Of a DNA stretch of 20,592 nucleotides, positions 2 through 19,711 are shown in pieces; position 1 is the stretch's first letter, and each line of letters begins with the position of its first letter. The stretch lies in IMG/VR virus record IMGVR_UViG_3300049856_000159, positions 1 to 20,592 of that record; one strand, given 5' to 3'. Under the pieces are notes generated by a model, which ran no database searches, was not told the origin of the DNA, and saw nothing but the letters and a program-made list of their open reading frames with translations. Source of the stretch: a virus. The position numbers and the translations under genes were made by a program.

Positions 2-550
2 CCCGGTGAATCGCTCAGGCAGACGGTAGAGCGGGCAGTTGCGTACGGTGCGCGCCTGGACGGTGCGAACCTGTCCGGTGCGAACCTGTCCGGTGCGCGC
101 CTGGACGGTGCGTACCTGGACGGTGCGAACCTGTCCGGTGCGTACCTGGACGGTGCGTACCTGGACGGTGCGAACCTGTCCGGTGCGCGCCTGTCCGGTG
201 CGCGCCTGGACGGTGCGTACCTGGACGGTGCGTACCTGGACGGTGCGTACCTGGACGGTGCGAACCTGTCCGGTGCGCGCCTGTCCGGTGCGCGCCTGGA
301 CGGTGCGTACCTGGACGGTGCGAAGGTCATCAGCACCGCGCAGATTGCTTTTACCGGCCACGGCCAATGCGGACGGCAGCTCATGGCGATCAAGACCGAT
401 AAGGGAATCCATCTTCGTTGCGGATGTTTCTCGGGAACACCGGAAGAGCTGGCGAAATACATCGCCAAAGGTGACCAGAAATACAAGACAACCCGTACCC
501 TCGCTCTGACGTTGGCGTTGATCCTCGTCGATGCGGAAAACGACAAATGA
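2..550 (+). CDS. Pentapeptide-repeat protein, 5' end cut by the window
   Basis: The reading frame is open from the first bases and ends at TGA 548-550; the start lies upstream of the window. After about 15 lead-in residues it carries 18 uninterrupted pentapeptides of the form G-A-[N/R/Y]-L-[S/D], the A(N/D)LxG pattern that builds a right-handed quadrilateral beta-helix. A non-repeat tail of about 78 residues follows, with [17 protein letters not shown] and a CGCFSG motif, an arrangement I recall from other phage pentapeptide proteins. Some family members (Qnr, MfpA) mimic DNA and protect gyrase, but most have no known role, so no function is assigned. The frame choice is firm: another frame gives only a Thr/Val/Arg-rich translation with no family pattern. 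The stop overlaps the next ATG by ATGA. Confidence 0.9.
47..316 (+). repeat. 15-bp tandem array, 18 units, inside the pentapeptide gene
   Basis: Eighteen consecutive 15-bp units ggtgcg[aac|cgc|tac]ctg[tcc|gac] run without indels. Only two codons vary: aac is always followed by tcc, tac always by gac, and cgc by either. Every other base is identical, including all wobble positions. That homogeneity points to recent expansion by slippage or unequal recombination rather than old protein-level conservation. Confidence 0.95.
137..316 (+). repeat. Exact 90-bp tandem duplication
   Basis: Units 7-12 of the array (137-226) are identical base for base to units 13-18 (227-316), in the order YD, YD, NS, RS, RD, YD. 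This is a perfect 90-bp head-to-tail duplication nested in the 15-bp array. It adds six pentapeptides, about one and a half turns of a beta-helix. Confidence 0.93.
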
Positions 551-5522: not shown

Positions 5523-5560
5523 TGTACACTAATCCCGCCAAGAAAGGCAAAACCAAATGA
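5522..5560 (+). CDS. 12-codon micro-ORF between the ATPase and DUF669 genes
   Basis: ATG 5522-5524 lies in a TAATG overlap with the ATPase stop and reads MYTNPAKKGKTK before TGA 5558-5560, which forms an ATGA overlap with the DUF669 start. The sequence also contains the AAGAAAGG ribosome-binding region of the DUF669 gene. It may simply pass ribosomes from one gene to the next, keeping the ATPase and its partner in step, rather than make a functional peptide. Confidence 0.35.
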   Translation: MYTNPAKKGKTK

Positions 5561-6027
5561 GTTTCTCTGACTTCACCCCTAACGCTGATAACGCCAATAC
5601 GGGCGGCGATTATACGCCTATTCCAGAAGGCATCTACGATCTTGTACTCGACAAGGCGGAATTGAAACGCACGAAGGCTAACGATGAGATGCTCTCCCTA
5701 GTGTTTGCTGTTAATTCTGGCGAGTATGCTGACCGTAAGATTTTTACCAATTTGCTGATGACGCATAACAATCCTGACGTGGTGTCGATTGCAAAGAAGC
5801 AACTAGATGCGTTGATCATCTTGGCAAAAGTCAAGTTTGACGGTACGACGGACTGCTTGGAAGGTAAAACGTTGAAGACCAAAGTATCCGTTAAAGCACG
5901 TAAAGACACCGGCGCGTTGCAAAACGAAGTGCTACTTGCGTTGCCAAAAGACGGCGAGCAAACTACCGAAGCTGCTCCCGCTAAGCCCTCTACTCGTCCC
6001 GTCGCAGCGCCTAAGGCTGCGTGGTAA
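5557..6027 (+). CDS. DUF669 protein, probable phage single-strand DNA-binding protein
   Basis: The 156 residues match the DUF669 family: PIPEGIYDLVLDKAELK at the start of an OB-like beta domain, LSLVFAVNSGEYADRKIFTN in the middle, and a KTKVSVKARKDTG strand. DUF669 proteins usually sit beside Sak4-type or other phage recombination ATPases and are thought to bind single-stranded DNA. The last 25 residues are a disordered Ala/Pro/Lys tail (AAPAKPSTRPVAAPKAAW) ending in Trp, not the acidic tip of bacterial SSB. The start is coupled to the micro-ORF upstream. Confident on family, inferential on role. Confidence 0.85.
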   Translation: MSFSDFTPNADNANTGGDYTPIPEGIYDLVLDKAELKRTKANDEMLSLVFAVNSGEYADRKIFTNLLMTHNNPDVVSIAKKQLDALIILAKVKFDGTTDCLEGKTLKTKVSVKARKDTGALQNEVLLALPKDGEQTTEAAPAKPSTRPVAAPKAAW

Positions 6028-6050
6028 CCCTTACTAAGAAAGGAGGAATC

Positions 6051-6119
6051 ATGAAGAAAGCTGCCGCTAAGCCAGCATCGAAGCCGGTTAAGAAACCAGT
6101 TAAGAAGCCGATGTGCTAA
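6051..6119 (+). CDS. 22-aa Lys/Pro/Ala-rich basic peptide
   Basis: ATG 6051 is preceded by AAAGGAGGA, among the strongest ribosome-binding sites in the window, at good spacing. The product is MKKAAAKPASKPVKKPVKKP followed by Met-Cys: extremely basic, Pro-rich, with no hydrophobic residues to form a core, like a histone-H1-type tail. It ends with a single Cys. It lies 23 bp after the DUF669 stop and its composition resembles that protein's tail. A nucleic-acid-condensing or partner-binding peptide is possible. The strong start signal, not length, is the evidence that it is made. Confidence 0.6.
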   Translation: MKKAAAKPASKPVKKPVKKPMC

Positions 6120-6392
6120 GTCTTTGAACGCCCTTCCCTGCAATAGCCCATCTCTTTTGGTGTGAGCGTGTGAGGGGTGATCAAGGTCCGTTGGTTACGT
6201 CTACCTTATAGATGTGACGGTGTGTCGGCCATCTGACACAGTTATGGTGCGAGTTTGGTAACAGATTCGTACAGGGTATGGCACTAGCGCACTGCTCTAA
6301 CTTGCGCTAAGAGGTGACTTGAACCGTTACGCGGTCGATGATCTGCTGTGGGAGGGCACCCCACTTATTCAAACTAACCAGAAATAAACAAA
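6120..6392 (+). other. 273-bp gap with four predicted hairpins; candidate structured RNA
   Basis: This is the only gap of more than 100 bp on the plus strand. By eye it holds four inverted repeats. H1: 10-bp stem 6194-6203 with 6209-6218 (two G-U pairs, 5-nt loop). H2: 6-bp stem tgtgtc/gacaca, 6221-6226 with 6235-6240. H3: 7-bp stem tagcgca/tgcgcta, 6285-6291 with 6303-6309. H4: 5-bp stem gtggg/cccac, 6348-6352 with 6360-6364. None is followed by a T-run, so they are not ordinary terminators. No sigma-70 promoter is convincing and no tRNA cloverleaf was found. A small RNA, leader or regulatory element for the downstream genes is possible. Confidence 0.4.
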
Positions 6393-6710
6393 ATGACTGA
6401 AATTAACCACACTACATTAACTCTCAACGGCGTTGAGTACATTCGCAAAGACTCCTTAGCTATCGCTAGCCCACCTATTGGGGATAAGCGAATCATCATT
6501 GCTGACCGCGGGTGGATCTTTGTGGGCAACTGCGTTACTAATTCGGATGGCACTGTGACCATCACGAACGCCATGAACATCCGCAAGTGGGGCACCACGA
6601 AGGGCCTTGGGGAGCTTTCTACCGGCCCCAAATCGGGAACCGTGGCCGATCCTTATGGGACTGTACGGTGTACGCCTATTGCTGAAATTGGAGTTACCAG
6701 TGGTTGGTAA
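6393..6710 (+). CDS. DUF6948-like phage protein, 105 aa
   Basis: Begins MTEINHTTLTLNGVEYIRKD, a common lead-in in phage proteins. The core follows: RIIIADRGWIFVGNCV, then ITNAMNIRKWGTTKGLGELS and GPKSGTVADPYGTV. The IRKWGTTKGLGEL signature is shared by a family of phage proteins I recall as DUF6948. Function is unknown; the fold is probably a small beta domain. No good ribosome-binding site precedes the ATG, unusual for this operon, so translation may depend on the structured region upstream. The stop lies inside a hairpin at the border of the Gly-Tyr array. Confidence 0.7.
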   Translation: MTEINHTTLTLNGVEYIRKDSLAIASPPIGDKRIIIADRGWIFVGNCVTNSDGTVTITNAMNIRKWGTTKGLGELSTGPKSGTVADPYGTVRCTPIAEIGVTSGW

Positions 6711-6713
6711 CTT
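6691..6713 (+). promoter_or_regulatory. Hairpin spanning the stop of one gene and the start of the next
   Basis: AGTTACCA (6692-6699) pairs perfectly with TGGTAACT (6705-6712), extended by a G-U pair, around loop GTGGT (6700-6704). The TAA of the DUF6948-like gene (6708-6710) is in the right arm. The candidate GTG start of the repeat protein (6700) is in the loop, and its GGAG signal (6690-6693) is partly in the left arm. Such a structure would hide the second start until a ribosome finishing the first gene opens it. Confidence 0.55.
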
Positions 6714-6999
6714 GTTGCTGTTGGCTACCGGCTACGGCTACGGCTACGGCGACGGCTACGGCGACGGCTACGGCTACGGCGACGGCTACGGCTACGGCGA
6801 CGGCGACGGCGACGGCTACGGCTACGGCTACGGCTACGGCGACGGCTACGGCAACGGCGACGGCTATGGCGACGGCTACGGCAACGGCGACGGCTACGGC
6901 AACGGCTACGGCTACGGCAATGGCAACGGCTACGGCGACGGCGACGGCAACGGCAACGGCTACGGCTACGGCAACGGCGACGGCTACGGCTACGGTTGA
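6700..6999 (+). CDS. Gly-(Tyr/Asp/Asn) dipeptide-repeat protein
   Basis: Starting at GTG 6700 (GGAG six bases upstream) the product is 99 residues: a short hydrophobic lead (MVGNLLLLATG), then 44 Gly-X pairs with X = Tyr, Asp or Asn, then Gly and TGA. Low-complexity Gly-Tyr/Asp/Ser tails occur, from memory, in phage proteins, often attached to a DUF6948-like or similar domain. Here the array is in the +1 frame relative to the DUF6948-like gene, so it is either a separate coupled protein or a tail reached by frameshifting. The frame is supported because the two odd units (tat, aat) are silent only here. Intrinsically disordered, possibly sticky; role unknown. Confidence 0.5.
   Translation: MVGNLLLLATGYGYGYGDGYGDGYGYGDGYGYGDGDGDGYGYGYGYGDGYGNGDGYGDGYGNGDGYGNGYGYGNGNGYGDGDGNGNGYGYGNGDGYGYG
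6730..6996 (+). repeat. Hexanucleotide tandem array GGC-NAC, 44 units
   Basis: Forty-four six-base units (6730-6993) of form ggcNac, closed by ggt. N is T in 23, G in 13 and A in 8 units, never C. Only two units deviate at the last base (tat, aat). A-type (Asn) units occur only from unit 21 on, which suggests local copy-number expansion. Replication slippage would readily change its length. Confidence 0.92.
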
Positions 7000-7095
7000 A
7001 TTTTGCGTATCCGTAAGTCGTCCGCGTAAGGGGCGACGCGTGTTAAGGTTAGTGCAAAAGATAAAGCGGCAGATGCCACACCAAGTGAGGAATAG

Positions 7096-7293
7096 ATGGC
7101 TGATATAACGATGTGTAGTTCTAAGACGTGCCCTTCTGCCGGTAAGTGCTTTCGCCATCCCGATTCGGGAACCAAAGAGCATCCGTACTGGCAGAGTTGG
7201 TTTTCTGACGATCCGCATAAAGGGCCGCACGGGACATTGCAAGGTTGTACCGATGGCGGATGGAAAAATGCACCAAAGCAATTACCACAGTAA
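7096..7293 (+). CDS. Small Cys/His-containing phage protein, 65 aa
   Basis: The 65 residues begin MADITMCSSKTCPSAGKCFR and continue with PYWQSWFSDDPHKGPHGTL. The spaced Cys residues (C7, C12, C18) with a later Cys suggest one metal site or disulfide cluster. The MADITMC start followed by C-P and the PYWQS phrase is one I have seen in many phage early proteins without a named function. GAGGAA lies a few bases before the ATG. The 96 bp before it (7000-7095) hold no convincing gene. Confidence 0.7.
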   Translation: MADITMCSSKTCPSAGKCFRHPDSGTKEHPYWQSWFSDDPHKGPHGTLQGCTDGGWKNAPKQLPQ

Positions 7294-7456
7294 AACACTT
7301 TTCCAAGGCCAAAGAAAAGCCGTAAAGACGCACCAATGCGATGATTGTTTTCGTGCTATCTGTAAAAACGAGTATTACTTTGTGGCAGTTACGCTTTAGG
7401 TACAAGACGCAGATCGGTTTGTTCAAGTTCAACGTTCATGTTGTAGGGAAAAATGA
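7268..7456 (+). pseudogene. Small zinc-ribbon gene interrupted by an in-frame amber codon
   Basis: ATG 7268 opens 43 codons (MHQSNYHSKTLFQGQRKAVK, then THQCDDCFRAICKNEYYF) ending at TAG 7397-7399. Reading on in the same frame gives 18 more residues (VQDADRFVQVQRSCCREK) to TGA 7454-7456, and that TGA overlaps the next ATG as ATGA, exactly like its neighbours. Cys-x2-Cys, a Tyr-containing turn, then an aromatic and a late Cys is the layout of small phage zinc ribbons of the type HxC-x2-C...I...Y...C, so the amber sits in mid-domain. Either a recent nonsense mutation, amber readthrough, or a genuinely short 43-residue protein. TAG is a normal stop elsewhere in the window. Confidence 0.6.
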
Positions 7457-7572
7457 TTAAATACGCGACAATGAGGGCGATCTGCACACAGTGCAACGCG
7501 CTGTTTATGACACACAAGAGTATGCATCACAGACGAAAGCGTTGTCCGCGCTGCCACGGAAGCCAAAAATGA
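7453..7572 (+). CDS. 39-aa zinc-ribbon microprotein
   Basis: ATG 7453 to TGA 7570-7572 encodes MIKYATMRAICTQCNALFMT followed by a basic loop and CPRCHGSQK. Two CxxC knuckles separated by a His/Arg-rich loop make a minimal zinc ribbon. ATGA overlaps link it to the gene on each side, and the following gene's start is fixed by this stop. Probably binds zinc and nucleic acid or a protein partner; no family name assigned. Confidence 0.65.
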   Translation: MIKYATMRAICTQCNALFMTHKSMHHRRKRCPRCHGSQK

Positions 7573-18100: not shown

Positions 18101-19711
18101 AAGGCGTAGCTGCCGGTCTGCCTTTTTCCAATCTTCTTTAAAAAGACGCTGTAGGTGCCCCTCGCTTATTTTTTTATCGGCGTTGAATAGCTCCTCAATG
18201 TCGTGTAGTGATTTTCCGACTAAAGGACCGTCGAGAAGCGACGGCGACGTTTGCTCTCGCGGAGTTTCAACCGCCGCGCCTATACGTGTTTTATTTGCTC
18301 GGCGCTGCAAACCTTCATCAATCATCTGGAGATTACCGAGATAGCCTTTAGGATCCGGGTTTGCACGTAGATGTTCAACAGATGGCGCGAGGGCGGTTTG
18401 TCGCTCAGGCGGAAGACTATCGACGTATGCTTGTGCTTCCGGCGAGAGTGGACTCGCTTGCTGTTCAGCAGCAAGCGATTGTTGCTCTGCATCAAAAGCC
18501 GTTTGATCAGCCCGTTTGGTGCGCTCATCAATGCGTTTTTGTGCATCGATGCTACCGACGGCGGCAGGCTCTTGAACAGTTACCGGTTGGCTACCTATCT
18601 TCTCTGCTTTCTTACCGAGTAGTGCTTTAAGTTCTTCCGGCGTATATGATTCATGAAGGGTGCTTGCCACCTCAGAACCGGGTACTTCTTTAACGGCGCC
18701 TTGCATTCCATATGCCGCATCTCGTGCCACTGGAATTGCTTCGGCGGGAAGAACCCCTTGGCCTACGGGAGCAGGCACTACGTCGTCACCGCGATTGGCG
18801 GGTTGCCCGAAGTCTTGAGCGCGTTGTGCAATAGCGGCATCTTCGGTAATGCGCGCTTGCCGGGCTACCCGTTCTCCCCGCAATGCCGCAGGAAGTGCGT
18901 GTGCTCCGGGTAATAGCCCAAGCCCCGCACCTACTGCATAGTCGGCAGCACCTGGCGCAAACTGCTCATTGCCTGTCGCATAATCTGTAGCGCCCTGCAA
19001 GCCGGTTGCTGCAAGATTCGAGACAACGCCGGTTCCTGCCAAAGCGGCTGCTGCCATACGTCCTTCTTGCCCCAACGCTGACGCAGTGGGAACTACCGAT
19101 AACGCTGCGTTGGTCCCGGCAGTAACTCCAAGATTAAGTCGGTTAAGCGGATCGCGAAGGTCTTTGCCTTGATCCTGCATCTGTACGGCTTTGTTAGTCG
19201 TATCACCCAGCGCAGCGGTAAGGCCTGTAACGGGGGTGGAGTATGCAAGTAGATTTGAACCTGCTGCACTAAAAGGATCCATCCCTGCTTCTTGGGTCTG
19301 AACGCTTTGCGCTTGCTGTTGTAAGCGTTGAGCTAAGGCATCACGATACTCGGGTGAGATAACCGGAAGGTTATCACCGCCGTAAGGATTAGGAACGCGG
19401 GCGGCGTTAAGTAAGCCGCCTACCGCAGCGTTAGCGCCAAGCGCGATCTTTTTACCCGCAAGTCCAAAAGTGTCCGCTACTTCTGAGCCGTACTGCGATG
19501 CAAGACTCGGCGCTTCGTTTTTAGTTGGCGTACCAACGCGATTGCGCGCAATGTCACTAATGCGGCCAAAGTCATCTACTGTCGGGGTGTAGCCATTAGC
19601 CTTAAGCCCGGCTCCTGCCATCTGCATGACTTCTGCCGGATCAAGCGTAACGCCTTGCTTCTTCGTCTCATTGATGATGTAATCAACAAGACCCTCGTGA
19701 TTGACCGGCAT
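15131..19711 (-). CDS. Giant virion-type protein, 1526 aa (putative internal/ejection protein)
   Basis: A very large helical protein starting MPVNHEGLVDYIINETKKQG, with AGGGG five bases before the ATG. Visible layout: a helical N-terminus; a Gly/Ala-rich hydrophobic region at about residues 190-275 (LAGTGVVSNLAATGLQ, GAGLGLLPGAHALPAAL); a Gln/Ala-rich charged stretch at about 395-445; long helical regions with DRLARSSHEGVRKVAERF at about 800; and near residue 1310 another membrane-prone segment (AGLGLGAAATTAATAALYYG). Size, composition and membrane-prone segments match internal virion or DNA-ejection proteins of podovirus-like phages. No lysozyme or transglycosylase motif was recognised. It is last in the late operon, 8 bp after the Gln-rich gene. 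Confidence 0.7.
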   Translation of the reverse strand: MPVNHEGLVDYIINETKKQGVTLDPAEVMQMAGAGLKANGYTPTVDDFGRISDIARNRVGTPTKNEAPSLASQYGSEVADTFGLAGKKIALGANAAVGGLLNAARVPNPYGGDNLPVISPEYRDALAQRLQQQAQSVQTQEAGMDPFSAAGSNLLAYSTPVTGLTAALGDTTNKAVQMQDQGKDLRDPLNRLNLGVTAGTNAALSVVPTASALGQEGRMAAAALAGTGVVSNLAATGLQGATDYATGNEQFAPGAADYAVGAGLGLLPGAHALPAALRGERVARQARITEDAAIAQRAQDFGQPANRGDDVVPAPVGQGVLPAEAIPVARDAAYGMQGAVKEVPGSEVASTLHESYTPEELKALLGKKAEKIGSQPVTVQEPAAVGSIDAQKRIDERTKRADQTAFDAEQQSLAAEQQASPLSPEAQAYVDSLPPERQTALAPSVEHLRANPDPKGYLGNLQMIDEGLQRRANKTRIGAAVETPREQTSPSLLDGPLVGKSLHDIEELFNADKKISEGHLQRLFKEDWKKADRQLRLTGEVRDDLLEKHGVDLSTDSPDYKAIYQSGYDAKDYRTELGNLHEAENLQTPEDMGHFLINNLYKTLDRSGDELANKLRDTAMAIVSTKMHAAGADPVAVMRKAGAEQIQSGLRDPKEVNQIAELIQGKMKDMLDEKARNAPEGKRYLVEPETGKARLVTDYTAVDPKETVAYADLSPAQQNRVDVAEKNTQRKLAGRNQARTGASMNPADALIEGGKAVGKLSKELLNVTRGDTNLASRTLRYAEGLAGASAIDRLARSSHEGVRKVAERFNEAFHVAQKVKTETHEAATKARALTSIVDPRKEFALRRLDKPNFEPGQNWASSDLMDMYTGAKPRAAILKDVFDGVDLANKATYDIAQKSGLPTVTSDSKNVLVRRHTPQAQTVFDGNNPSALDTWVKVLSEKNGIPEEVVLKDWGPSEVGEGALVGRVGMEQSRKYPFQPAYIKDAKGKVIKMIETDPHSYVEGLFQSTADRIGFHSAFEGASTGSDLAKSLPELKVGVINKEQIAAVNDAVNAYHNVSSHGLDANDKGTVRYYNDAKKIISNLMLTATAYQDALEHFNLVGSVPVQHVLYGVANRAMNPGRAVREGGLEKTIYNKTDLRRGDVAGVSPGQTIDNVANGLRRGSLRNTMNRSVRGAAYESARSWITSMRKDGISLLDEGYAAKHHLPDSLIASLKDGSATDADIHAAATRVAENVVGESRNRAQQGTLSRNDKLLLLGPLFRRYAENRIRTILRTMESARGILSRDASTAAKAHAFSRIVGESVAGLGLGAAATTAATAALYYGMDSLRMMYESGDYKIPVLVQVLGGGPIGNSIQETARAGDLTGKRIWQMLVAPFGLASTAVSAGEKPADAVPAVKRINRLMNVKDMTGPYAYNLYKEKTAKLFGKVSITGGEGPSYLSQSRADLRKALLEQDYKKVNRITAKVQEANSDAEYNKFIRSAMLLHQYRDEKTGGAKLIKLRLALGPAAFKRLQKVDNDLEMRLSE

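What the first reader, a model, noticed from the sequence alone, without database searches (positions are those of the whole stretch)
6691..6713. Hairpin that joins the stop of one gene to the start of the Gly-Tyr array
An exact 8-bp inverted repeat (6692-6699 with 6705-6712) holds the TAA of the DUF6948-like gene in one arm, the GTG candidate start in its loop, and part of the GGAG signal in the other arm. Opening of the hairpin by the terminating ribosome would release the next start. Because Gly-Tyr tails are, from memory, fused to similar domains in other phages, the site could alternatively mark a +1 frameshift that appends the array as an optional tail.
Basis: partly seen in the sequence, partly recalled or inferred. 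Interest (0 to 1): 0.6.

Follow-up and report, generated by a model that had tools for sequence, protein, structure and literature searches.

The report
Overlapping phage gene pair, chance hairpin
The small hairpin between the two phage genes is real but looks accidental; what evolution keeps instead is a gene pair, found in very different phages, in which a gene for a long Gly-Tyr/Asp/Asn repeat protein starts inside the end of a gene for a small, possibly RNA-binding, protein.

Summary
The inverted repeat is present exactly as described (arms 6692-6699 and 6705-6712, 5-nt loop with GTG 6700-6702; TAA 6708-6710 in the 3' arm). It is not more than chance: the window has 3 exact 8-bp repeats of this kind, 2.4 +/- 2.0 expected. 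It is absent in L003 (78% identical protein), partly broken in L009, and with the window left out it pairs in relatives no better than synonymous codons predict (p = 0.18). Both the hairpin switch and the frameshift-tail idea lose support. In about 150 distinct relatives the array is a separate same-strand gene downstream, in frame +2 (117), +1 (25) or 0 (7); only one is fused in frame. A domain-based sample that did not select for arrays has the array in 92 of 94 testable cases. What is conserved is an overlap: the array's start codon precedes the domain's stop in 126 of 145 pairs, typically by 13, 16 or 19 nt, and in 89 it uses the TG of a domain Trp codon. Best reading: an overlap-coupled two-gene module, a DUF6948-superfamily protein (predicted Sm-like fold, weak evidence) plus a low-complexity Gly-Tyr/Asp/Asn protein. 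Coupling and function are inferred. No published description found in the held library.

The parts
6393..6710 (+). Gene 1: 105-aa DUF6948-superfamily protein, C-terminus ..GVTSGW, stop TAA 6708-6710
   Evidence: ORF; relatives 73-78% identical in IMG/VR; superfamily link to PF22253; AlphaFold model pLDDT 86.9
6690..6693 (+). GGAG, likely Shine-Dalgarno for gene 2, 6 nt before GTG
   Evidence: sequence
6692..6712 (+). Inverted repeat, arms 6692-6699 and 6705-6712, loop 6700-6704
   Evidence: not conserved beyond coding constraint
6700..6702 (+). GTG start of gene 2, overlapping gene 1 by 11 nt
   Evidence: same position as ATG in L001/L002/L009 and GTG in L003; the leader MVGNLLLLAT resembles MAGSAVLLLNT and MGGDAALLLNT
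6700..6999 (+). Gene 2: 99-aa Gly-X (X = Tyr, Asp, Asn) low-complexity protein, stop TGA 6997-6999
   Evidence: Gly-X frame kept although Gly codons vary (GGC, GGT, GGA, GGG) between phages
6730..6996 (+). Hexanucleotide GGC-NAC repeat array of gene 2

Best explanation
The junction is a short overlap between two separately translated phage genes that form a conserved module. Gene 1 encodes a DUF6948-superfamily small beta-barrel protein, by predicted fold most like Sm/LSm RNA-binding proteins. Gene 2 encodes a Gly-Tyr/Asp/Asn low-complexity protein whose start codon lies inside the 3' end of gene 1. The most likely mechanism is translational coupling: a ribosome finishing gene 1 re-initiates at, or clears, the nearby GTG, helped by GGAG, so the two proteins are made together in a set ratio and probably act together. 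The 8-bp inverted repeat in this genome is an incidental, at most modulating, feature. Shown: two separate frames, conserved overlap, start position and module; hairpin not conserved. Inferred: coupling, joint action, RNA binding.
For: Closest relatives keep the 11-nt overlap and a similar array leader. Array downstream in 149 of 160 distinct domain ORFs plus 1 fusion, and in 92 of 94 testable loci of a scan that used only the domain motif. Start before stop in 126 of 145 pairs, offsets -13, -16, -19 in 78 of 145; start codon uses TG of a domain Trp TGG codon in 89. Frame varies +2/+1/0. Isolated phages of Rheinheimera, Eggerthella, Iodobacter and Pectobacterium carry the pair. Published work shows that coupling needs overlaps or very short distances and that such pairs often encode subunits of one complex (PMC10666635; review PMC12548453).
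Against: Coupling itself is not measured. Overlaps of 11-19 nt are not the commonest type (-4 and -1 are). Some relatives have the start 1-4 nt after the stop. 7 domain ORFs show no array nearby. In the window's closest clade the stem persists partly (L001 9 of 9 with wobbles, L075 8 of 9), so a local role is not excluded.
Confidence: 0.82

Rival explanations
1. Hairpin-gated coupling (RNA-unfolding type, as in MS2 coat-lysis or f1 VII-IX): the stem hides the GTG and part of the SD until the terminating ribosome opens it.
For: Exact 8-bp stem (9 bp with the closing G-U), -10.5 kcal/mol, on the start and SD; the same register pairs 9 of 9 with wobbles in L001 and 8 of 9 in L075. The mechanism exists in other phages (PMC12548453).
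Against: Broken in L003 (4 of 9), two mismatches in L009 (7 of 9); without the window, 5.85 pairs observed against 5.62 expected from synonymous codons, p 0.18; mean z over 64 junctions only -0.21; number of such repeats in the window at chance level.
Confidence: 0.13
2. Programmed +1 frameshift that appends the array as an optional tail of gene 1.
For: The array is in the +1 frame here and in L001, L003, L009; one relative (L135) encodes domain and array in one frame.
Against: Frame is +2 in 117, +1 in 25, 0 in 7 separate pairs; nearly all arrays have their own start near the stop; by inspection no classical slippery site at GGT TGG TAA.
Confidence: 0.02
3. The array is a DNA or RNA repeat element, or is translated in another frame (Ala-Thr), not a Gly-X protein gene.
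For: In the window the variable base would be a silent third position in the Ala-Thr frame; some depositors annotated other frames (MVMV in L006, MAMA in L246).
Against: Across phages Gly codons vary (GGC, GGA, GGG, GGT) while Gly-X is kept; the Ala-Thr frame has no ATG/GTG/TTG start before the array in L001 and L003; the Gly-X frame has a similar leader and overlapping start in relatives.
Confidence: 0.03

Closest known systems
Translationally coupled overlapping gene pairs (termination-reinitiation)
   Same: Same strand, start of the second gene inside the end of the first, SD in front of it, likely functional partners (PMC10666635)
   Different: Overlaps cluster at 13, 16 and 19 nt rather than 4 and 1, the start often being built from a Trp codon of the first gene; coupling not measured here
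RNA-unfolding coupling in MS2 coat-lysis and phage f1 VII-IX
   Same: A stem covers the downstream start in this genome
   Different: The stem is not conserved in relatives and is near chance level
DUF6948 (PF22253)
   Same: Linked by intermediates L072 and L131 and by predicted structure
   Different: The window protein itself does not reach the Pfam cut-off
Sm/LSm/Hfq proteins, some with disordered tails
   Same: Nearly all of the best PDB fold matches are Sm/LSm proteins
   Different: Foldseek E-values 0.02 and up; the low-complexity part is a separate gene; RNA binding untested

Membership tests
Overlap-coupled gene pair | Co-directional genes overlapping or a few nt apart | tested here: met
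   11-nt overlap; 126 of 145 pairs overlap
Overlap-coupled gene pair | SD-like sequence at proper distance from the second start | tested here: met
   GGAG 6690-6693, 6 nt before GTG 6700; SD-like triplet in 97 of 145 pairs
Overlap-coupled gene pair | Second gene's translation depends on the first | not testable with these tools
   needs reporters
Hairpin-gated (RNA-unfolding) coupling | Stable stem over the second start or RBS | tested here: met
   -10.5 kcal/mol for 6690-6714
Hairpin-gated (RNA-unfolding) coupling | Stem conserved beyond coding constraint | tested here: not met
   p 0.18 without the window; L003 broken
Programmed frameshift fusion | Constant frame relation between the two parts | tested here: not met
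   +2, +1 and 0 all occur
Programmed frameshift fusion | Fusion product exists | not testable with these tools
   needs mass spectrometry
DUF6948 (PF22253) | Pfam score above the gathering cut-off | tested here: not met
   no hit for the window protein; 13-20 bits in L003, L005, L072 against cut-off 27
DUF6948 (PF22253) | Homology through intermediates or predicted structure | tested here: met
   L131 matches the profile of the window family (E 6.8e-8) and PF22253 (8.7e-30); BFVD DUF6948 protein at E 7.7e-6
Sm/LSm fold | Significant match to solved Sm/LSm structures | tested here: inconclusive
   nearly all top 50 PDB matches are Sm/LSm, probability mostly near 1.0, but best E 0.019; second aligner closed

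The most novel reading that the evidence does not exclude
A widespread, undescribed phage module: a phage Sm-like protein and a separately encoded Gly-Tyr low-complexity partner whose start codon is often built into a C-terminal Trp codon of the first gene. The two would be co-translated and form an RNA- or DNA-binding assembly or condensate in infected cells.
Probability: 0.25. Interest if true: 0.75.

Novelty: new variant of a known kind. Interest (0 to 1): 0.42.

Why it matters
The hairpin itself does not matter much. The conserved pair does: it occurs in phages of unrelated hosts, is annotated as hypothetical, 'lamprin' or in the wrong frame, and a simple rule (start codon at the end of the DUF6948-like gene, often in its Trp codon) finds the second gene. 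Near-obligatory pairing plus one natural fusion suggests that two uncharacterised proteins work together, which can be tested directly.

Tried and rejected
DNA-level search of 6001-7500 in phage records: no match. Rfam: only a weak isrG match on the other strand, rejected. Relatives in GTDB genomes with A3: none. Pfam hits of the array protein (TrAA12, below cut-off) and the NCBIfam serine-rich hit taken as low-complexity matches. Hairpin as an intrinsic terminator rejected: no T run. Literature for DUF6948 or Gly-Tyr phage arrays: no relevant papers in the held library. In one search the frames of L216 (picked a Gly-Thr reading) and L134 are doubtful.

Full report
Observation. The stop TAA 6708-6710 of the 105-aa ORF (6393-6710) is in the 3' arm, the GTG at 6700 is in the loop, and the last two bases of GGAG (6690-6693) are in or beside the 5' arm. 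The array ORF is in the +1 frame. The 25-mer folds at -10.5 kcal/mol (z -3.5), but z shrinks to -2.0 and -0.9 in 51- and 81-nt contexts. The window holds 3 exact 8-bp repeats with 3-8 nt loops, against 2.4 +/- 2.0 in shuffles. The site was picked after seeing it, so its position at a junction is only weak evidence.

Relatives of the domain gene. IMG/VR gave L001/L002 (76%), L003 (78%) and L009 (73%). In all of them the domain ORF ends ..GW-stop and is followed by a Gly-X array in the +1 frame, whose start (ATG in L001, L002 and L009; GTG in the window and L003) overlaps by the same 11 nt. The array leaders are alike: MVGNLLLLAT (window), MAGSAVLLLNT (L001), MGGDAALLLNT (L009). This supports GTG 6700 as the start. 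More distant relatives in isolated phages (Rheinheimera Barba18A, Eggerthella PMBT5) and Manatee Spring phages also have the array as the next gene, in various frames.

Wider survey. A scan for Gly-X-coding repeats and, independently, a scan for the domain motif WGTxKGLGEL were analysed with an HMM of the domain. Of 160 distinct domain ORFs, 149 have a separate array downstream on the same strand, 1 (L135) is fused in frame, 7 have none within 250 nt, and 3 are cut. Frames of the separate pairs: +2 in 117, +1 in 25, 0 in 7. In the domain-motif sample alone, 92 of 94 testable loci carry the array. In 145 pairs the best start lies before the end of the domain stop in 126; offsets -13, -16 and -19 make up 78; in 89 the start's TG is the TG of a domain TGG (Trp) codon; 97 have an SD-like triplet upstream. 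The start choice is a simple score (ATG and SD preferred), so single offsets may be wrong. The distribution differs from the usual -4 and -1 spacing described for prokaryotes (PMC12548453).

Hairpin test. At the window's stem register, 14 relatives ending GW-stop (window included) pair 6.07 of 9 on average, but synonymous-codon resampling with the amino acids held fixed already gives 5.68 (p 0.044). Without the window the figures are 5.85 against 5.62, p 0.18. L003 keeps 4 of 9, L009 7 of 9 with two mismatches, L001 9 of 9 with wobbles. Over 64 junctions the mean folding z is -0.21. So a stem is partly present in some close relatives, but coding constraint accounts for most of it.

Frameshift test. 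A frameshift tail needs a constant frame relation; it is not constant. Nearly every array has its own start close to the stop. One in-frame fusion in about 150 suggests instead that the two proteins belong together.

Reading frame of the array. Within the window alone the Ala-Thr frame could look constrained, because the variable base would be a silent third position. Across phages Gly codons are GGC, GGA, GGG or GGT while Gly-X stays, and the Ala-Thr frame lacks a standard start before the array in L001 and L003. Some deposited annotations chose other frames.

Identity of gene 1. No Pfam or PHROG hit for the window protein. L072 (58% identical) reaches DUF6948 weakly (6.6e-4); L131, found by the window family's HMM, matches it at 8.7e-30. 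AlphaFold with 46 sequences gives pLDDT 86.9, pTM 0.68. BFVD matches include DUF6948 proteins, best at 7.7e-6; PDB matches are nearly all Sm/LSm chains, best E 0.019, so the Sm-like fold is a lead and not a result. The confirming aligner was closed.

Mechanism. Overlaps and very short distances are what translational coupling requires, and such pairs often encode subunits of one complex (PMC10666635). The likely mechanism is therefore coupling through the overlap and SD, with the hairpin incidental. A ribosome terminating at 6708-6710 would cover the stem anyway. Coupling, joint action and nucleic-acid binding remain inferences.

Noticed in passing
window 2-550: Repetitive [15 protein letters not shown] protein, pentapeptide-repeat-like, at the left end of the record, itself a tandem DNA repeat.
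   Followed up: no
window 6120-6392: About 270 nt without an obvious plus-strand gene upstream of the domain gene, after a tiny Lys/Pro-rich ORF (6051-6119); no Rfam family found.
   Followed up: partly
window 5557-6027; L001 about 3631 onward: The DUF669 (SSB-like) gene lies upstream of the pair in the window, but a similar-looking protein starts directly downstream of it in L001, as if the pair moves as a cassette.
   Followed up: no
L104 9108-9488 and 9789-10169: Two tandem copies of the domain-array pair in one phage contig, both followed by arrays.
   Followed up: no
L066, L107, L110, L115, L020: Here the array runs on in frame into a further domain at its C-terminus (for example ..VDGVPTIVSSHRGNLA.. 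in L066); the two tested (L066, L115) have no Pfam match.
   Followed up: partly
L006 2902-3192; L246 1831-2076: Array genes annotated in the wrong frame in public records (MVMV.., MAMA..); in L246 an ATG in the Trp codon opens the Gly-X frame (MDGINYGYGDG).
   Followed up: partly
window 18455-18479: The only other exact 8-bp short-loop inverted repeat site in the window, inside the 1526-aa minus-strand ORF.
   Followed up: no
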